Source of the DNA: Methylomagnum ishizawai
Lineage (GTDB): Bacteria; Pseudomonadota; Gammaproteobacteria; Methylococcales; Methylococcaceae
Length of the DNA: 64,000 nt
Reading direction: 5' to 3'
Assembly (NCBI RefSeq): GCF_019670005.1
Contig: NZ_AP019783.1
Location: forward strand, 578,501 to 642,500
Part shown: positions 45,838 to 56,511 of the stretch, in pieces
Layout of the letters: each line of letters starts with the position of its first letter
How positions within the stretch are numbered: position 1 is the first letter of the stretch
Program-made: the position numbers and the translations under genes
Notes under the pieces: model-generated
The model's database searches: none
The model's input: only the letters and a program-made list of their open reading frames with translations
Told to the model about the DNA's origin: nothing

Positions 45838-46497
45838 TCAACCGGGGGCGCGCAGGCGCCATGCGGTCTCGCCCAGGGCGGTCAAGCCCCGCGCCCGGAG
45901 CGCCGGACTATCGGCCAGGGCATCGAGGACTTCGAGCGCGTCGATGGCGCGGCGCGGACCGTACAGGCGTTCGACCTGCGCCGCCGGGGTGGAGAATGGC
46001 GGTCCCTGCATTTCCCCGGCGGGATAGTCCAAGGCGATCAGCAGGATGGGCGCGGCCGCCGGGACCAGGGCCAGTAGATGCTCGGCGTAGGCGGGCTGGC
46101 GCTCGGGCGGCAGGGCGATCAGCGAGGCGCGGTCGTACACCGCGCCGATGGCGGGCAGGTCGGCGGGGGTGAGCGCGAACAAATCGCCCTGGTACAAAGT
46201 GATGCCCCCGGCCTCGAACACCCGCAGCGGGCCGCGCTCGGCGACGCGGGGTTCCAGGCCGTTCTCGGCGAAGAACTGCCCGACCGCCAGGGCGCTGAGT
46301 TCCACCCCCACCACGGGATGGCCCAAGCGCCGCAGATACACGAGGTCCAGGCTCTTGCCGCACAGGGGCACGAACACGGCACACCCCGCCGGGGCGTCCA
46401 GGGCGGACCAATGGCGTTCCAACAAGGGGTTGACGCCGTCGAGATGGAAGCCGATTTCCTGGTTTTGCCAGCGGTCTAGCCAGAATTGTGGGTCCAT
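45838..46497 (-). CDS. tpm: Thiopurine S-methyltransferase
   Basis: A 219-residue SAM-dependent methyltransferase of the bacterial TPMT family, linked in other bacteria to selenium/tellurium methylation and detoxification. Signatures: FWLDRWQNQEIGFHLDGVNP, VFVPLCGKSLDLVYL, VVGVELSALAVGQFF and VYDRASLIALPPERQPAYAEH. Length as in the family. I start at MDPQFWL, where homologues begin. Divergent from the giant hybrid kinase. Confidence 0.93.
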   Translation of the reverse strand: MDPQFWLDRWQNQEIGFHLDGVNPLLERHWSALDAPAGCAVFVPLCGKSLDLVYLRRLGHPVVGVELSALAVGQFFAENGLEPRVAERGPLRVFEAGGITLYQGDLFALTPADLPAIGAVYDRASLIALPPERQPAYAEHLLALVPAAAPILLIALDYPAGEMQGPPFSTPAAQVERLYGPRRAIDALEVLDALADSPALRARGLTALGETAWRLRAPG

Positions 46498-46764
46498 GGG
46501 GTTGATCTCCAAAGTTCGGGGGACGGACGGGGCGTATCGGCAGCAAGTTTCAGCTTACTGTGCCGAGCAATAATACAAAACCCCCGTGGGAACTGTTTCA
46601 TATTCAAAACTTCCAAAACCAGTGCCGCGCTTCGATCCGAGGAATATCAAAAGCCAAATCCGCTTAAACCGCTAATATATATAAAACCGACCCCTTTGGT
46701 TATAAGCTCGCGGCTACCGGCCCAGGCCGATGGCCGTTCCGCCGCGCAGGTCCACCCGCTTCCC

Positions 46765-49700
46765 ATGCCAATAGCCCGCTCACCCGCCATGCCACCCCCA
46801 CCCCATCCCCCAACCTTGGAGACTTGCCGCCCGACCCTGGGCATCGCCCTGGTCATCGCGCTGGCCTTCGCCGTCTTCGCCCTGCTGAGCCACACCTGGG
46901 TTTCCCGGCTCGGCCAGGATTGGTACGACTATCACCACAACGCCCTGCGCGCCGCCCGGCAGTTGGAGAAAATCCGCACCGCCTGGGATTACGGGGGGTT
47001 CGTCCACCACTTCAAGGAGTGGATCCTCCACCGCGATCCCGGCGATTACGACCGGGCCGGGGCCGCCTTGCAAGCGCTCTACGCCGCCATCGACGGCTAC
47101 GACCGGCTCAAGCCCGATGCGGAGGAACGCGCCGACCTGGACCAACTCCGCATCGGCGTGGACCAGTACGCCGCCCGCCACCGCCGCTCGGGCCTGCCGG
47201 AAAACCGCGGACTCCCGCCGCCCGAACTCGCCCAGCGGGTGGGCGTGCCGGACCGGGACCCGCTCGGCGCGGCCATCGCCCGGCTCCAAACCCACATGGA
47301 CGACCAAGCCACCCGCCAGGATGCCAAGCTGGCCCACAGCCTGGACCGCCTGGGCACCTTGATCGCGGCGGGACTCGGCTTCCTGCCCGCCTTCCTCCTG
47401 GGGGGCTTCTCGCTGGCGCGGTCCCAGCAACGCTCGGCGCAACTGGCCGAGAACCTGCGGAATTCCGCCCAGCGCCTCGCCGAGAGCGCGCGCACCTTCC
47501 GCCACCTGGCCCAATTCTCCCCGGTCGGCATTTTCCGTTGCGATGCCGGAGGGGATTGCGTCTATGTCAACGAGCGGCTGGCGCAGATGACGGGCCGGGC
47601 CGGCGACACCCCGCCCGCGGGGCTGGATTGGCTGGGCGACCCCCACCCCGAGGACTGCGGGCGGGTGCTGGCGAATTGGGCCGGGGCGTTGGCGGCGGAC
47701 GGCGAGTTCCGGGAGGAATACCGCTTGCTGCGGGCCGATGGCGGCATCGCCTGGGTCATCGCCGAGGCCCGCCCCGAGCGCGACGACACCGGCGCGGTGG
47801 CCGGCTATATCGGCACCTGCACCGAAATCACCGAATCCCGCCACATGCAAATCTGGCACGAACATTTCTTCGCGCTATCGCCCGATCTCCTTTGCATCGC
47901 CGGCCTGGACGGCTATTTCCGCGAACTCAGCGCCTCCTGGAACAGCACCCTGGGCTGGACGGCGGAGGACCTCCGCGCCCGGCCCTGGCTGGACTTCGTC
48001 CACCCGGACGACCGCGCCGCCTCCGAGAACGCCCGGCTGCGCCTGGTGAAAGGGCGACGGGTACACGCCTTCGAGAACCGCTACCGCACCCGCGAGGGCG
48101 GCTACCGCTGGCTCAGCTGGCATTCGCTGCCGCTGCCTGAAGAAGGCATCTGCTACGCCGTGGCCCGCGATATCACCGAGCAAAAGCGGGCGGAGGACGA
48201 TATCCGCCGCCTCAACGAGAACCTGGAACGGCGCGTGGTGAAACGCACCGCCGAACTGGCGGCGGTCAACGCCGCCCTGCGCGTCAGCGAGGCCCGCTTG
48301 CAGGCCATCCTCGACAACACCCGCACCGTGGTCTTCCTCAAGGATTTGAATGGGCGCTACCTGCTCGCCAACCGGCGCTACCTGAAGCTGTTCCAACTGG
48401 CCCCGGACCAAGTGCTGGGCAAAACCGACCAAGATTTGTTCCCCACGGCCACCACCGCCCATGTCCAGGCCAACGACCTGGCGGTGGCGCGGAACGGGGT
48501 GCCGATGGAATTCGAGGAGACCGTGCCCACCCCGGACGGCGTGCCGCGCATCTACATCAGCATCAAATTCCCCTTGCGGGACGAGCAAGGCCAAATCTAC
48601 GCCGTGGGTGGCCTCGCCACCGATATCACCGAGCGCAAAATGGCCGAGGCGGCGCTCCAGGCCAGCGAGGCACGGTTGCGGCTGTTCCTCGAACACGCGC
48701 CCGCTTCCATCGCCATGTTCGACCGCAAGATGCGCTATCTGGCGACCAGCCGCCGCTGGATGACCGACTACGGCCTGGGCGACCGCGATATTACCGGACT
48801 CTCCTACTACGAGGTCTTCCCCGACATCCCCGAGCGCTGGAAGGATATCCACCGCCGCGGCCTGGCGGGCGAGGTGCTGCGTTCGGAGGAGGACCGCTTC
48901 GAGCGTTGGAACGGGGAGGTGCTGTGGTTGCGCTGGGAAATCCAGCCCTGGTACGACGGCGGCGACACCCCGGCCGGCCTCGTGGTTTCCAGCGAGGATA
49001 TCAGCGGGCGCAAACGCGCCGAGCGCGAACTGCGCCTGAGCGAGGAACGGCTGAAACTCGGCATGGAAGTGGCGGGCGTGGCGCTGGCCGAGATCGACTA
49101 CGCCACCGGCCTGTGCCATCTCTCCGCCGAGGCCGCGCACCTGTTCGGCCTGGGCCTGGAACCCACCATCCTGTCGCGTGCGGCGCTACACACGGTGTTC
49201 CATTCCGACGACCAGGCCGAACTGATGGACCATATCGCGGCCTGCCTCGATCCCGGCGGACCGGGCTGGTTCGCCATGGAACACCGGGTGGTCTGGCCCG
49301 ATGGCTCGGTGCGCTGGCTCAGGGTGCGCAAGCAGGTGTTCTTCGCGGACGAGGGCGCGGCCCGCAAGCCGGTCCGGGCCATGTTGGCGGTGCTGGACGT
49401 GACGGTGGAAAAAGCCGCCACCGCCGCCGTGGCCGCGAGCGAGGCTTTTGTGCGCGGCGTGCTGGACTCCCTGCCGCAACAGGTGGTGGTGCTGGACGAA
49501 ACCGGCGAGGTCCGCGCCGTCAACGAACCTTGGCTCGATTTCGCCAATGCCCATGGTACCCCGGAAAGCGCCGTGTCGACGGGCGTGAACTACCTCGAGG
49601 TATGCCGCCGCGCCGCCGCCGAGGGCGACGCCTACGCCCAGGAAGCCCTGGACGCCCTGCAAGACCTGCTGGCCGGGCGGCGCGAACGCTGCGTGCTGGA

Positions 49701-52038
49701 ATATCCCTGCGTCGGACCGGAGCGCGAGCAATGGTTCCTGCTGCAAGCCCGGCGGCTGCTGTATGGCCGTCCCGGACTCATCCTCAGCCATATCGACATC
49801 TCCGAGCGCAAACAGGCCGAGGAAGCGCTCCGCAACCAGGAGGAACGCATCCGCACCGTGTTCGAGCATGTGGTGGACGCCATCATCACCATCGATTCGC
49901 ATGGCCTGATCCATTCCTTCAACCCCGCCGCCGAGCGGATTTTCGGCTACCGCGCCGGGGAAGTCCTGGGCCGCAACGTCGGCCTGTTGATGCCGGAAGC
50001 ACAGGCCGACGCCCATGATGGCTATCTCAAGCGCTACCTGGACACCGGCGAGGCCCGCATCATCGGCCTGGGCCGCGAGGTGCTGGCCCGGCACCGGGAC
50101 GGCCACGAACTGCCCTGCGACCTCGCGATCAGCGAGTTCCACATGGGCGGCGAGCGCTATTTCACCGGCGTCCTGCGCGATATCACCGAGCGCAAGGCCA
50201 TGCTGGCCGCCCTGGCCCAGGCCAAGGAGGAAGCCGAGCAGGCCAACCGGGCCAAGTCGCTGTTCCTCGCCAACATGAGCCACGAAATCCGCACCCCCAT
50301 GAACGCCATCATGGGCATGACGGCGCTCTGCCTCGCGGCCAATCCCAGCGAGCAACAGCGCAACTACCTCACCAAGATCGGCAGCGCCTCCGAATCCCTG
50401 CTGCATGTCATCAACGACATCCTGGATTTCTCGAAGATCGAGGCGGGCAAGCTGGACATGGTGGAGGAACCTTTCATCCTCGCCGCCGTATTCGAGGGGC
50501 TGGCCTCGATGCTGGGGGCCAAGGCCCAGGAACGGGGCTTGGAATTGGTGTTCCACATCGCCCCCGGATTCGATCAAACCCTGGTCGGCGATGCCCACCG
50601 GCTCAACCAAGTGCTGGTCAACCTGGTGGGCAACGCCATCAAATTCTCCCGCCAGGGCCAGGTGCGGGTGGATGTGGACGAGGTGGCCCGCGGGGACGGG
50701 CGTATCACCCTGGCCTTCGCGGTGCGCGACCAGGGCATCGGCATTGCCGCCGCAACCCAGGCCCGGCTGTTCCAGCCGTTCAGCCAGGCCGACGCCTCGA
50801 CCACCCGCGGCTTCGGCGGCACCGGGCTGGGGCTGGCCATCAGCAAGCGGCTGGTGGAGATGATGGGCGGCGGGATCGAGGTCGAAAGCGCACCGCGCCG
50901 GGGCAGCCTGTTCCGCTTCACCGCCTGTTTCCTGCTGGGTGGCCCGGTCCCCGCCCGCCTCCCGCCGCCCTTGTTCGCCCAAACCCCGGAAGGCGCGGCC
51001 CTGGATCAAAGACGCGGCGCGGACATCCTGGTGGTGGAGGACGCCGAACTGAACCAGGAAGTCATGCGCGAGCTCTTGGAGCGGGCCGGTTTCAAGGTGC
51101 GGCTGGCCGTCAACGGCAAGGAAGCCTTGCGGGCCGTGGCGGAAGCGGTGCCGGATTGCGTGCTGATGGATTGCCAGATGCCGGTGATGGACGGCTTCGA
51201 GGCCACCCGGCGGCTGCGGGCGGAAGGCTACGCGGACCTGCCCATCGTCGCGCTGACCGCCAACGCCATGGCGGGCGACCGCGAGCGCTGCATCGCCGCC
51301 GGGATGAATGGCTTCGTGACCAAGCCGGTCAACCTGGCCGAACTGCTGGACACCCTGGTCCGCTGGGTGAAACCGCGCGCCGCGCCGCCGCCCGCCCAGT
51401 CTCCCGCCGCGCCGGGGGGGCCACCCCTGCCGGAGTTGCCGGGCATCGACACCGGGCGGGGCTTGGCGCGGATAGCGGGCCGCCTGGTGGTCTACGTCAA
51501 GCTGTTGCGGCGCTTCCGCGACCAGCACGGCCCGGAATTCCGCGCCGACTTCCAGGCGGCGCGGCGGCGGGGCGATTGGACGGAACTGGGCCGTTTGGCC
51601 CACACCCTCAAGGGCGCGGCCCTGACCCTGGGCATCACGGAACTGGGCGGCTGGGCGGCCCGCCTGGAGAAAGCCATCCGGGCCGGCCAGGCGGAACTGG
51701 CCGCGCAATGCCTGGACCCGTTGGAACAGAGCCTGGAAACCGCGCTGGCCGGGCTGGCCCGGCTCGAAGACTGGAAAGAGGCCGGGCCGCCCCCTCCCGC
51801 CACCACCAACCCGGCGGAATGGGCGGGGCTCTGCCGGGAATTGGAACACCTGCTGGAAGAGCATGACACGGCGGCCCTCGAAACCGTGGCCGCGCTCGAA
51901 CAAGCCATGCGCGGCAGCGGCTTCCAAACCGAGATCGCCGCCATCGCCCACTTGATCGCACGCTATGCTTTCATGGAGGCACGGGAACGGCTGACGCGCC
52001 TCATCCCCCTCCTCCCCGGTCCTGGAAACATCCTATGA
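46765..52038 (+). CDS. Giant seven-PAS hybrid histidine kinase
   Basis: A 1757-residue inner-membrane sensor. Two transmembrane helices (about 26-45 and 197-217) enclose a helical periplasmic domain of about 150 residues. Seven PAS/PAC units follow, at roughly 245-362, 362-480, 509-627, 629-753, 756-889, 892-1019 and 1022-1149, with a coiled coil at 480-508 (NLERRVVKRTAELAAVNAAL). HisKA has phospho-His1173 (NMSHEIRTPMN). HATPase is about 1275-1390 (GTGLGLAISKRL). The receiver has Asp1469 (LMDCQMPVMDGF). HPt has His1613 (LAHTLKGAAL). The complete relay sits in one chain. The start could be 46765 or 46789. ATGA overlap couples it to the HD-GYP gene, its probable output. The 267 bases upstream include an AT-rich tract at about 46645-46710. 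Confidence 0.92.
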   Translation: MPIARSPAMPPPPHPPTLETCRPTLGIALVIALAFAVFALLSHTWVSRLGQDWYDYHHNALRAARQLEKIRTAWDYGGFVHHFKEWILHRDPGDYDRAGAALQALYAAIDGYDRLKPDAEERADLDQLRIGVDQYAARHRRSGLPENRGLPPPELAQRVGVPDRDPLGAAIARLQTHMDDQATRQDAKLAHSLDRLGTLIAAGLGFLPAFLLGGFSLARSQQRSAQLAENLRNSAQRLAESARTFRHLAQFSPVGIFRCDAGGDCVYVNERLAQMTGRAGDTPPAGLDWLGDPHPEDCGRVLANWAGALAADGEFREEYRLLRADGGIAWVIAEARPERDDTGAVAGYIGTCTEITESRHMQIWHEHFFALSPDLLCIAGLDGYFRELSASWNSTLGWTAEDLRARPWLDFVHPDDRAASENARLRLVKGRRVHAFENRYRTREGGYRWLSWHSLPLPEEGICYAVARDITEQKRAEDDIRRLNENLERRVVKRTAELAAVNAALRVSEARLQAILDNTRTVVFLKDLNGRYLLANRRYLKLFQLAPDQVLGKTDQDLFPTATTAHVQANDLAVARNGVPMEFEETVPTPDGVPRIYISIKFPLRDEQGQIYAVGGLATDITERKMAEAALQASEARLRLFLEHAPASIAMFDRKMRYLATSRRWMTDYGLGDRDITGLSYYEVFPDIPERWKDIHRRGLAGEVLRSEEDRFERWNGEVLWLRWEIQPWYDGGDTPAGLVVSSEDISGRKRAERELRLSEERLKLGMEVAGVALAEIDYATGLCHLSAEAAHLFGLGLEPTILSRAALHTVFHSDDQAELMDHIAACLDPGGPGWFAMEHRVVWPDGSVRWLRVRKQVFFADEGAARKPVRAMLAVLDVTVEKAATAAVAASEAFVRGVLDSLPQQVVVLDETGEVRAVNEPWLDFANAHGTPESAVSTGVNYLEVCRRAAAEGDAYAQEALDALQDLLAGRRERCVLEYPCVGPEREQWFLLQARRLLYGRPGLILSHIDISERKQAEEALRNQEERIRTVFEHVVDAIITIDSHGLIHSFNPAAERIFGYRAGEVLGRNVGLLMPEAQADAHDGYLKRYLDTGEARIIGLGREVLARHRDGHELPCDLAISEFHMGGERYFTGVLRDITERKAMLAALAQAKEEAEQANRAKSLFLANMSHEIRTPMNAIMGMTALCLAANPSEQQRNYLTKIGSASESLLHVINDILDFSKIEAGKLDMVEEPFILAAVFEGLASMLGAKAQERGLELVFHIAPGFDQTLVGDAHRLNQVLVNLVGNAIKFSRQGQVRVDVDEVARGDGRITLAFAVRDQGIGIAAATQARLFQPFSQADASTTRGFGGTGLGLAISKRLVEMMGGGIEVESAPRRGSLFRFTACFLLGGPVPARLPPPLFAQTPEGAALDQRRGADILVVEDAELNQEVMRELLERAGFKVRLAVNGKEALRAVAEAVPDCVLMDCQMPVMDGFEATRRLRAEGYADLPIVALTANAMAGDRERCIAAGMNGFVTKPVNLAELLDTLVRWVKPRAAPPPAQSPAAPGGPPLPELPGIDTGRGLARIAGRLVVYVKLLRRFRDQHGPEFRADFQAARRRGDWTELGRLAHTLKGAALTLGITELGGWAARLEKAIRAGQAELAAQCLDPLEQSLETALAGLARLEDWKEAGPPPPATTNPAEWAGLCRELEHLLEEHDTAALETVAALEQAMRGSGFQTEIAAIAHLIARYAFMEARERLTRLIPLLPGPGNIL

Positions 52039-53069
52039 ACAAGCCCTCCCTGGAAACCTTGCTCTTGGTGGACGATTCCCCGCAAATCATCGATGTGCTG
52101 GGAGAAATCCTGCGCCCCCGCTACCGGGTCAAATTCGCCACCAACGGGCCCGACGCCCTCGCCCTGGCCCGGAAAGCCCCGCCCAGCCTGATCCTCCTCG
52201 ACGTGATGATGCAAGGCATCGGCGGCCACGAAGTCTGCCGCCGCCTCAAGGCCGACCCGCGCACCCGCGACGTGCCGGTGATCTTCATCACCGCCAGCGA
52301 CGCCGCCGCCGACGAACAACTGGGCCTGGAGCTGGGCGCGGTGGACTACCTGCACAAGCCGCTCAATCCGCCCTTGGTGCTACAGCGGGTCCGCATCCAC
52401 CTGGACCTACACAACCAAAACCTGGCGCTGGAAGCCAAGGTGCGCGAGCGGACCCGGCAGCTAGAGGAAACCCGCATCGAGATCGTGCGCCGCCTGAGCA
52501 TGGCCGGCGAATACCGCGACAACGAAACCGGGATGCACATCGTCCGTATGAGCCATACCGCGCGGCTGTTGGCCCTGGCGGCGGGCGTGCCGGAACGGCA
52601 GGCCGAGGTGCTATACCAAGCCGCGCCGATGCACGATATCGGCAAGATCGGCATTCCCGACCGCATCCTGCTCAAGCCGGGCAAGCTCGACCCGGACGAA
52701 TGGGAAATCATGAAACGCCACACCCTGATCGGGGCCGAGATCATCGGCCAGCACGATTCGCCGCTGCTGCGCACCGCCCGGCTGGTGGCCCTCACCCACC
52801 ACGAGAAATGGGATGGCTCGGGCTATCCGCACGGGCTGGCCGGGGAAGATATCCCGCTGGAAGGCCGCATCGTGGCCCTGGCCGATGTCTACGACGCCCT
52901 GACCAGCCAACGTCCCTACAAGCAGGCCTGGCCGACCGCCGAGGCGTTCGCCTTCCTCCAAGAGCAGGCGGGGCGGCATTTCGATCCCAAGCTGACCGGC
53001 TTGTTCCTGGGGCTGGAAGCGGACATCATGCGCATCAGCGCCACCTACCAAGAAACCTCCGGCCCGTAG
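52035..53069 (+). CDS. HD-GYP response regulator (c-di-GMP phosphodiesterase)
   Basis: A 344-residue cytosolic protein. REC domain (1-125) with LLVDDSPQIIDVLG and acceptor LILLDVMMQG (about Asp57). A coiled linker (VRERTRQLEETRIEIVRRL) leads to an HD-GYP domain with HDIGKIG (His199) and HHEKWDGSGYPHGL. All key metal ligands appear present, so it should hydrolyse c-di-GMP to GMP. The start overlaps the kinase stop (ATGA), so the kinase HPt is the likely phospho-donor. Confidence 0.93.
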   Translation: MNKPSLETLLLVDDSPQIIDVLGEILRPRYRVKFATNGPDALALARKAPPSLILLDVMMQGIGGHEVCRRLKADPRTRDVPVIFITASDAAADEQLGLELGAVDYLHKPLNPPLVLQRVRIHLDLHNQNLALEAKVRERTRQLEETRIEIVRRLSMAGEYRDNETGMHIVRMSHTARLLALAAGVPERQAEVLYQAAPMHDIGKIGIPDRILLKPGKLDPDEWEIMKRHTLIGAEIIGQHDSPLLRTARLVALTHHEKWDGSGYPHGLAGEDIPLEGRIVALADVYDALTSQRPYKQAWPTAEAFAFLQEQAGRHFDPKLTGLFLGLEADIMRISATYQETSGP

Positions 53070-53120
53070 CACCGGACCCTGGCGCCCCCCTCCCAACAGC
53101 GCCCCAAGGATTCCCGCCCG

Positions 53121-54455
53121 ATGTCAGCCTCCTCCTTCCCGCTCGTACTGCCCAAGGTCCAAGACACGGCGCTGGAAACCACCAAATACCAAAACCTGCT
53201 CCGCGCCCTCCGCAACCGGCGGTTGAACGCGGCCCGGCTCGACCATACACCGCTGGATATCACGGTCGATATGTGTACCGCCTGCCATTTGCGCTGTCCT
53301 TATTGCGCGACCGGCAGCGGGGTCCTGGACCGCAGGGCGCAGGTCTTGGACCTCGAAGAACACCGCCGCATCCTGGATTTCTGCGGCGAACAGCTTTTCA
53401 CCATCTGGTATTTCAGCAATGGCGAACCCTTGCTGAACAAACGCCTGCACCGAATCGTGGCCGACGCCAAGCGCTACGGTATCTTCACGGTGATTTCCAC
53501 CTCGCTGAGCGTGCCCCTATCCGATACCCGGATCGACGAAATCCTCTATTCCGGGCTGGATTTGATTTCCTGTTCCATCGACGGACCCGATGCCGCGACC
53601 TATAACCGCTACCGCATCGGCGGCGATTTCAATCTAGTGCAGCGCAACCTGGAACGGCTTATCGCCCGCAAGCGCGAACTGGGTTTGCAATACCCCTTGA
53701 TCGAATGGCGCTATCTGGTATTCCGGCACAACCAAGACCTGCAAGCGGAAACCCGGCGCATGGCCCATAGCAAGGGCGTCGATATCCTGGAATTATTCCA
53801 AGGCTCCGCCCCCGCCCAAGCTCCCGAGGGCGCGGTCGCGGCCATGACCGGCGCGCTGCTCAGTCCGGCCATTTCCGGCCCGGCGGTCGAGGCGGGATTG
53901 CGGCGGCGCGATACCCTATTACGGCGGCATCTCCCGGAGTTATCGATCAATCCGGGCGAGCCGGGACCGGGCTTATTGGGCCGGAAATGCGATTGGCTGT
54001 ATTTCGGCTCGATGTTCTATCCCGACGGCAGCGTCGGGCCGTGTTGCGTCTTGGGGAATTCCGACACCGATTTTGGCCAGCGCGGCCCCGGCCTGGATTA
54101 TCGGGCGCTCTGGAACAACCCCAAATACCTGGACGCCCGCGCCAGTTTCCCCACGCCGCCCAAACCCTCCCACTCGATCTGCGCCCATTGCCCCGCCCCG
54201 CAGGTACAGGATTGGTTTTTCCGGCAATCGCTGCGGGCTTATCTCCTCAACGCGCCGGAATGGTTCATCCAAGCCGTGCTGGCCGAGCCCGAACAATTAT
54301 TCTATCCGGTGGATTTATATATGATGCCGGATGAATTCATGGCCTTGAAACGCTATCAGCAAGCCAAGCCATCGGTTCGACAAGCGGGTGAGCCGGGCCT
54401 AGATTGCCCGCTCTCTGAAAGAGATTCCCAGCCACAACCCAGCGAGGGAGAATAA
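53121..54455 (+). CDS. Radical SAM / SPASM-like protein
   Basis: A 444-residue enzyme. The [4Fe-4S]-SAM motif CxxxCxxC is CHLRCPYC (Cys55, Cys59, Cys62), with an extra Cys52. The barrel contains WYFSNGEPLLNKRL (GGE-like motif) and ISCSIDGPDAATYNRYR. Further cysteines near residues 289, 306-307 (GPCCVLGNS) and 353-356 (ICAHCP) look like a SPASM-type auxiliary cluster domain. Such enzymes modify peptides or proteins, but no precursor peptide is obvious nearby. Its TAA stop overlaps the RelE-like ATG by one base. It follows the HD-GYP gene by 51 bases on the same strand. Confidence 0.9.
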   Translation: MSASSFPLVLPKVQDTALETTKYQNLLRALRNRRLNAARLDHTPLDITVDMCTACHLRCPYCATGSGVLDRRAQVLDLEEHRRILDFCGEQLFTIWYFSNGEPLLNKRLHRIVADAKRYGIFTVISTSLSVPLSDTRIDEILYSGLDLISCSIDGPDAATYNRYRIGGDFNLVQRNLERLIARKRELGLQYPLIEWRYLVFRHNQDLQAETRRMAHSKGVDILELFQGSAPAQAPEGAVAAMTGALLSPAISGPAVEAGLRRRDTLLRRHLPELSINPGEPGPGLLGRKCDWLYFGSMFYPDGSVGPCCVLGNSDTDFGQRGPGLDYRALWNNPKYLDARASFPTPPKPSHSICAHCPAPQVQDWFFRQSLRAYLLNAPEWFIQAVLAEPEQLFYPVDLYMMPDEFMALKRYQQAKPSVRQAGEPGLDCPLSERDSQPQPSEGE

Positions 54456-54748
54456 TGCAATTGGTATTAGAACGCCGGGCGGAAATCGCATTGCGGTCAT
54501 TAAGCCCCACCGAGCAGAAGCAGCTTTCCCGTGCCATGGATGAAATCAGGGCGACCGATCCACAGGAGTTTTATAGAAGCCCTAAAGTGCATAGATTTAT
54601 CGCGGCTTCCGGCGATGCGCTTTATTCATACAAAGGCAATCGCGGCCTAAGGCTGATACTCAGTGTAAATGCCGATACCTGCACAGTCGAGGAAGTGGCG
54701 CACCATGATCGAATCATGCCGCTTTTGAAGCAGCCCAGGCCACAATGA
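54455..54748 (+). CDS. RelE/ParE-like toxin-fold protein
   Basis: A 97-residue protein with the RelE/ParE pattern: a first strand MQLVLERRAEIALRSL, helices LSPTEQKQLSRAMDEIR, then strands ALYSYKGNRGLRLILSVNADT and a closing VEEVAHHDRI. RelE-type proteins cleave ribosome-bound mRNA and ParE-type proteins poison gyrase. Catalytic residues cannot be assigned with certainty. No antitoxin with a DNA-binding fold is adjacent. The start overlaps the radical SAM stop (TAATG), and the stop overlaps the Shedu-like start (ATGA). GC content is visibly lower than in the surrounding genes. Confidence 0.72.
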   Translation: MQLVLERRAEIALRSLSPTEQKQLSRAMDEIRATDPQEFYRSPKVHRFIAASGDALYSYKGNRGLRLILSVNADTCTVEEVAHHDRIMPLLKQPRPQ

Positions 54749-55368
54749 AAAATTTGGTGAAACATCGCTTCGACGCCGCGAAATGCAGAACCGAATGGCA
54801 GGATTTCATCCAACTCCTCGCCTCGAAACCCAAGCTCTCCGAAACAGGAGATATCCTGCCATTTTTCAAACAGTGCCCGGACCTATCCTTGCTGATCTGC
54901 AAATATTTCCCCAAAGCCAAAAATCCCGATGTTCTTGCCCATGAATATGAAATCTATGGAGATTTCGTCGCCGACCTAGTGGTCGGCGATTCGGCAGCCC
55001 ATCAGTATCTCCTGGTGGAATTCGAGGACGCGACACCGGACAGCATTTTCAAATACAAAGGCAAGAAATCCACCCCGGATTGGTCGCCCAGGATCGAGTG
55101 CGCTTATTCGCAGCTGGTAGATTGGCTATGGAAGCTGGAAGATATGAGGAGCACCAACGATTTCTTTTGTGAATTCGGTAGCCACCGCGCCAGATTCCAG
55201 GGGTTGATTGTCATCGGCAAAGATATGAAGCTCGCTCAGCGCGAAATAGACCGGCTCCGCTGGCGGATGGACCGCACCTTGATCGACTCGAACGCCATCT
55301 CGGTGGTTTCCTTCGACGAGTTGGCCGAAGAGTTCGATTATTGGCTTAAAACCCATCACGGGGTTTAG
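54745..55368 (+). CDS. Shedu-like (DUF4263) putative defence nuclease
   Basis: A 207-residue protein resembling the C-terminal nuclease domain of Shedu (SduA). PD-(D/E)xK-like residues: Gly72 and Asp77 in YGDFVADLVVGD, the VEFED strand (91-95), Lys103/Lys105 in IFKYKGKK, and Gln123 in the helix AYSQLVDWLWKLED. Shedu proteins are single-protein anti-phage systems in several bacteria. This one is short, lacking a long N-terminal sensor domain, so the partners in the operon may supply that role (inference). Four-base overlap with the RelE-like gene. It is convergent with flhB, 12 bases away. GC content is lower than in flanking genes. Confidence 0.8.
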   Translation: MKNLVKHRFDAAKCRTEWQDFIQLLASKPKLSETGDILPFFKQCPDLSLLICKYFPKAKNPDVLAHEYEIYGDFVADLVVGDSAAHQYLLVEFEDATPDSIFKYKGKKSTPDWSPRIECAYSQLVDWLWKLEDMRSTNDFFCEFGSHRARFQGLIVIGKDMKLAQREIDRLRWRMDRTLIDSNAISVVSFDELAEEFDYWLKTHHGV

Positions 55369-55380
55369 CATAACCCCTTC

Positions 55381-56511
55381 CTAACTCCGAGCATACTCCT
55401 CCGGCACCTCGATATCCCCCAAAGGTCCGGGCATCTTCCCCCCATGGTGCCGGGCATCGCGTAATTGGTAGACATAGGCCAAGACCTGCGCCACGGCGAG
55501 ATAAAGCGCCTGCGGAATCTCCTGGTCCAGTTCGGTGCTGGCGTGGAGGGCGCGGGCCAGTGGCGGCGCGGCCACCAAGGGTACTTCCGCGCCCAGGGCC
55601 AGGTTGCGGATTTGCGCCGCGATCAAATCCACGCCCTTGGCGACCACCTTGGGCGCGCCCATGCCCGCCGCGTCGTACTTGAGGGCCACGGCGTAATGGC
55701 TCGGGTTGGTGATGACCACATCGGCCTTGGGCACCTCCTCCATCATGCGCCGCCGCGCCATCTCCATCTGCAAGCCACGGATGCGGCTCTTGACCTCGGG
55801 CTTGCCCTCGGCGTCGCGCATCTCGTCCTTGATCTCTTGCAGGGTCATCCGCAGCTTGCGCTTCCACGACCACAGTTGGAACGGCACATCCACCGCCGCG
55901 ATCAACACCAGCGAGGCGCACAGCCACAACAGGCAAGTCAAGACCAAATCCATGGCCCGGCTGGCGGCGGGCAGGAAATCCAGCCGCCCCAGCCCGACGA
56001 AATCGTCCAGGTGGTGCATGAACAAACCGGCGGTCACAAACCCCACCAGTAGGAATTTAATGACCGCCTTGATCGCCTCCACCGCCGCCTGCGCCGAGAA
56101 CATGCGGGCGATGCCGGGCAGCGGATTGAGCTTGTCCAGCTTCACCCCCAGGTTTTCGGAGGTGAAGTTCCAGCCGCCCAGGGCCAGGGGACCGAGCAAG
56201 GCCGCCAACACCGCCAGCGCCAGCAAGGGCCACAGCATCTCCAGCATCAGCCCCAGGTCGTAGGCCAAATGGGCCAAAGGCGCTTCCGGGTCGAAGGCGT
56301 CGCGCTGGGTCAGGCGGATATCGTGCAGCATCACCTCGCGCAGATCGTGCAATAGCCCGGACCCGAACATCAGCATCCCCGCCGCCCCGGCCATCAGCAC
56401 GGCGAGGGTGTTGAGTTCGCGGGAACGGGGAATCTGGCCTTGCTTGCGCGAATCTTCCAGCCGTTTGGCGGTGGGTTCCTCGGTGCGTTCCTGGTCGTTG
56501 TCTTCGGCCAT
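55381..56511 (-). CDS. flhB: Flagellar export gate protein FlhB
   Basis: A 376-residue inner-membrane protein of the flagellar type III export apparatus that controls the switch from hook to filament export. Starts MAEDNDQERTEEPTAKRLEDSRKQGQ-like, has four transmembrane helices, and a cytosolic domain with the autocleavage site. The usual NPTH motif reads NPSH here (VITNPSHYAVALKYD). The substitution keeps the Asn-Pro pair needed for cleavage. Three bases after fliR. flhA, often next, is absent; the convergent Shedu gene follows instead. Confidence 0.96.
   Translation of the reverse strand: MAEDNDQERTEEPTAKRLEDSRKQGQIPRSRELNTLAVLMAGAAGMLMFGSGLLHDLREVMLHDIRLTQRDAFDPEAPLAHLAYDLGLMLEMLWPLLALAVLAALLGPLALGGWNFTSENLGVKLDKLNPLPGIARMFSAQAAVEAIKAVIKFLLVGFVTAGLFMHHLDDFVGLGRLDFLPAASRAMDLVLTCLLWLCASLVLIAAVDVPFQLWSWKRKLRMTLQEIKDEMRDAEGKPEVKSRIRGLQMEMARRRMMEEVPKADVVITNPSHYAVALKYDAAGMGAPKVVAKGVDLIAAQIRNLALGAEVPLVAAPPLARALHASTELDQEIPQALYLAVAQVLAYVYQLRDARHHGGKMPGPLGDIEVPEEYARS

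What the first reader, a model, noticed from the sequence alone, without database searches (positions are those of the whole stretch)
53121..55368. Radical SAM/SPASM - RelE-like - Shedu-like operon with both junctions overlapping
The sequence shows three genes joined by TAATG and ATGA overlaps, so they are co-translated. Shedu (DUF4263) nucleases are known as single-protein phage defence. This one is short and seems to lack a sensor domain. Pairing it with a RelE-fold protein and a radical SAM enzyme is not an arrangement I know. The last two genes have lower GC than their surroundings, as expected of acquired defence genes. Possibilities: the RelE-like protein is a second effector, or the radical SAM enzyme modifies one of them. 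The radical SAM gene may instead be an older neighbour.
Basis: partly seen in the sequence, partly recalled or inferred. Interest (0 to 1): 0.75.

Follow-up and report, generated by a model that had tools for sequence, protein, structure and literature searches.

The report
RelE-partnered short Shedu nuclease pair
Next to an unrelated radical SAM gene lies a widely scattered two-gene unit, a small RelE-fold protein always placed directly before a short Shedu-type DNA-cutting enzyme, which looks like a two-part version of a bacterial anti-virus nuclease normally described as a single protein.

Summary
In detail: three same-strand genes with TAATG (54453-54457) and ATGA (54745-54748) junctions; the last two have the lowest GC in the window. 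Protein 2 has a RelE/YoeB fold (AlphaFold pLDDT 90.7; profile match to YoeB 5.6e-6). Protein 3 is a short Shedu nuclease (SduA_C 9e-31, PADLOC SduA 5.6e-88) without the N-terminal sensor domain.

The unit is two genes, not three. In 38 of 38 loci with a full-length relative of this SduA (Proteobacteria, Cyanobacteria, Campylobacterota, Planctomycetes, Kapabacteria, a Vibrio phage, P1-like phage-plasmids) a RelE-like gene lies directly upstream, often with the same 4-base overlap. None has the radical SAM gene. In the sister species the radical SAM gene is present, the pair is absent, and homology stops exactly at the junction. Seventeen other Shedu genes lack the RelE partner.

Best reading (about 0.45): the RelE-fold protein is a sensor/regulatory subunit in trans for a sensorless Shedu nuclease. 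RelE as second effector or toxin is not excluded. Peculiarities: an invariant ExE in place of ExK, and a genus paralog that lost its active site yet is under purifying selection. New variant of a known kind; two key Shedu papers could not be read.

The parts
53121..54455 (+). Radical SAM/SPASM gene (444 aa): neighbour, not part of the unit
   Evidence: ortholog at 95% identity in the sister species without the pair; no relative of it in any other RelE-SduA locus.
54453..54457 (+). TAATG junction; left end of the acquired segment (homology with the sister species ends at 54457)
   Evidence: GAGAATAATG is shared with the sister species, then the sequences diverge completely.
54455..54748 (+). 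RelE-fold partner gene (97 aa); conserved Arg66 at 54650-54652
54745..54748 (+). ATGA start/stop overlap between the partner and sduA, kept in 23 of 43 measurable loci
54745..55368 (+). Short Shedu nuclease gene, SduA-type (207 aa), nuclease domain only
   Evidence: fold shown on the ortholog L024.
54973..55026 (+). Active-site core of SduA: Asp77, then Glu92-x-Glu94 (ExE instead of ExK)
   Evidence: invariant in 36 of 38 full-length relatives; the two exceptions are the genus paralogs. IEVK at this place in E. coli SduA.
55111..55113 (+). Gln123 of SduA (SQ..DW helix), invariant with the active-site residues
55377..55381 (.). Right end of the acquired segment: homology with the sister species resumes at the 3' end of flhB

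Best explanation
The two genes at 54455-55368 are a mobile two-component Shedu unit. SduA is a PD-(D/E)xK-fold DNA nuclease without its own sensor domain. The RelE-fold protein made immediately before it binds SduA and does in trans what the fused N-terminal domain does in single-chain Shedu proteins: it holds the nuclease inactive and releases or directs it when it meets a sign of phage infection (a nucleic-acid structure or a phage protein). The phage DNA is then cut. Shown here: the folds of the two proteins, the missing N-terminal domain, the obligate pairing and gene order, the invariant D..ExE..Q active site, and the transfer between distant bacteria, a phage and phage-plasmids. Inferred: physical binding, the sensing role and defence itself.
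For: Pairing: of 46 loci gathered through SduA similarity or the partner profile, all 38 with full-length SduA have a RelE-like domain ending -4 to +37 bases from the SduA start (one frameshifted), 23 of 43 measurable ones with the exact 4-base overlap. Reciprocal test: a search with the RelE profile alone in a planctomycete genome returned further copies, and the three additional ones fetched all adjoin sduA. Control: of 17 other SduA_C loci in the same class, most with long N-terminal parts, none has a match to the partner profile. Missing sensor: the SduA ortholog model aligns to E. coli SduA residues 202-408 and B. cereus Shedu 183-379, Z 13.7 and 13.9, the nuclease part only. Partner behaves like a variable sensor: mean identity 24% against 41% for SduA over the same loci, with matching distance matrices (Mantel r 0.76, p 1e-4), and it gains N-terminal domains in some lineages (AHJR-like nuclease domain in Nostocales, about 100 extra residues in planctomycetes). 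Defence-like carriers: a Vibrio phage next to a Gabija-type gene and P1-like phage-plasmids next to darA and ssb.
Against: No complex could be modelled; the read-through model gives no confident interface (pTM 0.63, about what the nuclease domain alone would give). Co-variation of the two proteins weakens to r 0.29 once close relatives are left out. Neighbouring genes elsewhere are mostly not defence genes (PADLOC hits are few among 65 neighbours). The genus paralog has lost the SduA active site but is under purifying selection in both genes (dN/dS 0.13 and 0.11), which a pure nuclease-plus-sensor model does not predict. No infection data.
Confidence: 0.45

Rival explanations
1. The RelE-like protein is a second effector: on infection it cleaves mRNA or blocks gyrase while SduA cuts DNA, so the pair is a two-effector abortive defence in which SduA also restrains it.
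For: RelE fold with R66 conserved in 20 of 23. Precedent: the CARF-RelE protein Cami1 is among the structural matches; the ptuXYZ operon pairs a YoeB-like domain with a nuclease and an ATPase (PMC11980606). Selection keeps the genus paralog pair although its SduA active site is gone.
Against: The residues that aligned with the YoeB active site, other than R66, are not conserved; instead D80 (E in the window) is nearly invariant. Fast divergence is unusual for a catalytic effector.
Confidence: 0.25
2. It is a toxin-antitoxin module in which the RelE-like protein is a constitutive toxin and SduA has taken the place of the antitoxin, serving maintenance of the carrier.
For: Gene order and 4-base overlap resemble higBA-type modules (own knowledge); found on plasmids and phage-plasmids.
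Against: In 7 loci SduA is truncated or frameshifted while the RelE-like domain is intact (L018, L027, L061, L076, L077, L078, L080), which a potent toxin would not permit. Some are MAGs or drafts and could hold sequencing errors. No DNA-binding antitoxin domain is seen in SduA.
Confidence: 0.12
3. SduA works alone and the RelE-like protein only tunes expression of the operon or the stability of SduA.
For: An Enterobacter plasmid keeps intact SduA with a frameshifted partner (L010); RelE-fold proteins commonly act in autoregulation (own knowledge).
Against: Pairing across phyla is without exception; a mere expression tuner would be expected to be lost or replaced more often.
Confidence: 0.13
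4. All three genes form one functional unit, with the radical SAM enzyme modifying one of the other two proteins.
For: Same strand and TAATG junction in the window.
Against: No radical SAM relative in any other pair locus; the sister species keeps the radical SAM gene without the pair and the TAATG sequence precedes the junction there too.
Confidence: 0.02

Closest known systems
Shedu (SduA; E. coli SduA 8ps4, B. cereus Shedu 8ti8/8ti9)
   Same: Nuclease domain of the same family and fold.
   Different: No N-terminal sensor domain; always preceded by a RelE-fold gene; ExE in place of ExK; described in the sources read here as a single-protein system.
V. cholerae VcSduA (type I-D Shedu with GHKL ATPase domain; PMC12137116)
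   Same: Shares the DUF4263 nuclease domain under the control of another domain.
   Different: Its regulatory domain is an ATPase in the same chain, and the Lys of its PD-(D/E)xK motif is essential (K557A), whereas this clade has Glu at that place.
RelE/YoeB/HigB/ParE toxins of type II toxin-antitoxin modules
   Same: Fold of the partner (Z about 10-11).
   Different: No antitoxin gene next to it; active-site residues poorly kept; survives loss of SduA in seven loci.
ptuXYZ (PMC11980606)
   Same: A YoeB-like domain in one operon with a restriction-type nuclease, proposed for phage defence.
   Different: Three genes with an ATPase and a DUF262 protein; no Shedu nuclease (one search finds neither Shedu nor DUF4263 in that paper).
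Cami1 (CARF-RelE, CRISPR-associated)
   Same: A RelE-fold domain used inside an immune protein.
   Different: Fused to a cyclic-oligoadenylate sensor and acting on the ribosome; no nuclease partner of the Shedu kind.

Membership tests
Shedu (SduA) | DUF4263 / SduA_C nuclease domain by profile | tested here: met
   Pfam 107.6 bits against cut-off 27; PADLOC PDLC00379 5.6e-88; all 23 relatives match it.
Shedu (SduA) | PD-(D/E)xK fold like the solved Shedu nucleases | tested here: met
   Model of the ortholog L024 (about 40% identical to the window protein) matches 8ti9_B Z 13.9 and 8ps4_A Z 13.7. The window protein itself was not folded.
Shedu (SduA) | Catalytic D..ExK motif | tested here: inconclusive
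   D77 and E92 are kept, but the Lys is Glu94 in 36 of 36 active-type members; E. coli SduA has IEVK. ExE occurs in BamHI (own knowledge), so activity is possible.
Shedu (SduA) | N-terminal regulatory domain in the same chain (type I) | tested here: not met
   207 aa; aligned part corresponds to residues 202-408 of E. coli SduA. It is therefore not filed as type I Shedu.
Shedu (SduA) | Single-gene system | tested here: not met
   RelE-like gene directly upstream in 38 of 38 full-length loci.
Shedu (SduA) | Protection against phage | not testable with these tools
   Needs plating assays.
RelE/ParE superfamily (fold) | RelE (BECR) fold | tested here: met
   pLDDT 90.7; RelE, YoeB, HigB and ParE structures fill the list, Z up to 11.4; profile to YoeB 5.6e-6.
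Type II toxin-antitoxin toxin (RelE/YoeB) | RNase active-site residues of YoeB/RelE | tested here: inconclusive
   R66 kept in 20 of 23; other aligned positions vary. Alignment at the C-terminal end is uncertain.
Type II toxin-antitoxin toxin (RelE/YoeB) | Adjacent cognate antitoxin gene | tested here: not met
   The only constant neighbour is sduA.
Type II toxin-antitoxin toxin (RelE/YoeB) | Toxicity when freed from the partner | not testable with these tools
   Indirect evidence against: intact RelE-like domain beside broken SduA in 7 loci.
Prokaryotic viperin (radical SAM gene) | Viperin family score above cut-off | tested here: not met
   NCBIfam viperin 22.5 bits against cut-off 180; PADLOC pVip 4.9e-8 covers only the generic radical SAM part.

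The most novel reading that the evidence does not exclude
The RelE/ParE fold, known as a toxin, has been taken over as the obligate regulatory or co-effector subunit of a DNA nuclease: a two-component Shedu in which a RelE-fold protein replaces the built-in sensor, able in one lineage to work even after the nuclease active site is lost.
Probability: 0.4. Interest if true: 0.75.

Novelty: new variant of a known kind. Interest (0 to 1): 0.57.

Why it matters
Shedu is treated as a one-protein system whose specificity lies in its fused N-terminal domain. A clade that has no such domain and is tied instead to a RelE-fold protein gives a ready test of what activates Shedu nucleases, and of whether RelE folds can serve as sensors rather than toxins. 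Defence-annotation tools flag only sduA here and leave the partner as a hypothetical protein, so tests of such sduA genes alone may fail for want of the partner.

Tried and rejected
Three-gene unit with the radical SAM enzyme: rejected by comparison. Viperin reading of the radical SAM gene: below cut-off. Plain toxin-antitoxin module: disfavoured by seven loci with broken SduA and intact RelE-like gene. Defence-island context: few defence genes among 65 neighbouring proteins. Interface test: a stop codon in L024 was read as Gln to join the two in-frame genes into one chain for AlphaFold; both domains fold but their relative placement is not supported. A similar alignment with RelE-only rows misaligned and was not used. 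Viral-contig scans with four queries gave only two contigs, both of the Enterobacter-plasmid type. The two main Shedu papers (Gu et al. 2025, Loeff et al. 2025) are not held, and word searches for Shedu with RelE found no description of the pair.

Full report
What is there. Three same-strand genes lie at 53121-55368: radical SAM/SPASM (444 aa), a 97-aa protein and a 207-aa protein, joined by TAATG and ATGA. The last two have 51% GC in a 65% window, the lowest 0.2% of equal-sized stretches. Upstream stands a two-component system (a very large PAS-rich hybrid kinase and an HD-domain response regulator); downstream, on the other strand, are the flagellar export genes flhB and fliR (flhB and fliR named from their sequences, own knowledge).

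The third protein. It carries the Shedu nuclease domain (SduA_C 9.2e-31; PADLOC SduA 5.6e-88). A model of its ortholog L024 matches the nuclease parts of the solved Shedu proteins (8ti9_B Z 13.9 over 174 residues, 8ps4_A Z 13.7 over residues 202-408). The N-terminal half of the single-chain proteins is simply absent. Across 38 full-length relatives, E67, D77, E92, E94 and Q123 are kept in 36; the two exceptions are the genus paralogs, which keep only D77. E. coli SduA has E-V-K at the place of E92-F-E94, and the Lys of that motif is essential in VcSduA (K557A; PMC12137116). This clade therefore has an invariant Glu where the best-studied members have the Lys. An ExE site is known from BamHI (own knowledge), so the enzyme may still cut, but this was not tested.

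The second protein. No meaningful single-sequence Pfam match, but its family profile finds YoeB (5.6e-6) and archaeal RelE (2.2e-4) among solved structures, PHROGs calls it RelE-like (8.4e-7), and its model (pLDDT 90.7) is a RelE fold (best rows RelE, HigB, ParE-type, YoeB; Z 10-11). One arginine (R66) is well kept; the other aligned positions of the YoeB active site are not, and an Asp at position 80 (Glu in the window) is nearly invariant.

The pair is real. SduA relatives were collected almost entirely without reference to the neighbour: own genome and sister species, plasmids and phages, 84,980 species genomes, viral contigs, Proteobacteria and Cyanobacteria samples, E. coli genomes (by DNA of the whole pair). 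Every full-length one, 38 of 38, has a RelE-like domain ending between 4 bases inside and 37 bases before the SduA start; 23 of 43 measurable loci have the same 4-base overlap as the window. In one of the 38 (an Enterobacter plasmid) the partner is frameshifted. Many of these loci were not in the profile used to score them (L009-L014, L069-L080, L100). Searching a planctomycete genome with the RelE profile alone gave five hits; the four fetched lie beside sduA. Weak RelE hits (2e-7 or worse) elsewhere were not next to sduA, so this is a subfamily and not any RelE gene. As a control, 17 other SduA_C loci from Gammaproteobacteria, mostly with open frames of 340-480 codons, have no match to the partner profile; a few of these lie at contig ends.

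The radical SAM gene is a bystander. It is found in none of the other loci. In the sister species it is 95% identical, the match runs to GAGAATAATG and stops there, and no RelE gene follows. The match to the flhB side resumes at 55377, at a different place of that genome, next to an IS66-like element and a fragment of a type I restriction gene. The pair thus fills exactly a synteny breakpoint, and the TAATG junction belongs to the radical SAM side. The sister's radical SAM gene ends 18 codons early, so its last residues are not essential.

How it may work. The partner diverges faster than SduA (24% against 41% mean identity) and tracks it (Mantel r 0.76; 0.29 without close relatives). In Nostocales it is the C-terminal domain of a protein of about 400 aa that begins with an AHJR-like nuclease domain (PF18743), and in planctomycetes it has about 100 extra N-terminal residues. 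A fast-changing partner with interchangeable extra domains in front of a constant nuclease is the pattern described for the fused sensor domains of single-chain Shedu. This is why the partner is read as a sensor or regulatory subunit in trans. The alternative that it is a second effector is supported by its fold, by Cami1 and ptuXYZ as precedents, and by the paralog pair below. A constitutive toxin held by SduA is unlikely, since seven loci have a broken SduA beside an intact RelE-like domain.

An unexplained point. The genome and its sister species share a second pair (G000:C1:3497617-3498174, minus strand) in which SduA has lost E92, E94, Q123 and 14 residues between them. Between the two species dN/dS is 0.13 for this SduA and 0.11 for its partner, like flhB (0.10). 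A dead nuclease and its RelE partner are thus being kept, which speaks for some role not needing DNA cutting.

Limits. No complex was modelled; the joined-chain model has no supported interface. Defence is inferred from the family and from carriage on a Vibrio phage and P1-like phage-plasmids; the neighbours in bacterial chromosomes are mostly ordinary genes. The two key Shedu papers were not readable; one review speaks of 'Type I' Shedu, which implies other types, so the pair may have been noted there.

Noticed in passing
L003 / L047 (G000:C1:3497617-3498174, minus strand) and L002 / L048 in the sister species: Second RelE-SduA pair whose SduA lacks the active-site residues (E92A, E94G, Q123R, 14-residue deletion) but shows dN/dS of about 0.13; its partner 0.11. 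It lies beside an IS4-like transposase and nadB.
   Followed up: partly
L021, L023, L025, L027 (Nostoc, Dolichospermum); L022 lacks most of the N-terminal domain: The RelE-like domain is fused behind an AHJR-like restriction-endonuclease domain and a helical stretch with an RNxLAHG motif reminiscent of HEPN, with the short SduA gene directly downstream.
   Followed up: partly
G805 (planctomycete MAG): L028/L056, L058, L061, L063: At least four RelE-SduA pairs in one genome, one with a truncated SduA, suggesting local amplification.
   Followed up: no
L045 (G001:C1:530500-535500): Next to flhB the sister species has an IS66-like insertion and a fragment of a type I restriction HsdR gene at the place where the window has the RelE-SduA pair: a possible hot spot for defence genes.
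   Followed up: partly
L100 (E. coli CH468 plasmid, 46718-55648), L010, L011, L064: The pair sits between other genes and ssb/darA on P1-like phage-plasmids of Enterobacter and one E. coli strain.
   Followed up: partly
window 46486-53069: An 1850-codon open frame for a multi-PAS hybrid histidine kinase overlaps (ATGA) an HD-domain response regulator directly upstream of the radical SAM gene.
   Followed up: no
L012 2657-3004 (R. rhizogenes pRi1724): The RelE-like partner gene is not listed in the plasmid gene table although the SduA gene after it is; partners appear as hypothetical proteins or are missing in such tables.
   Followed up: no
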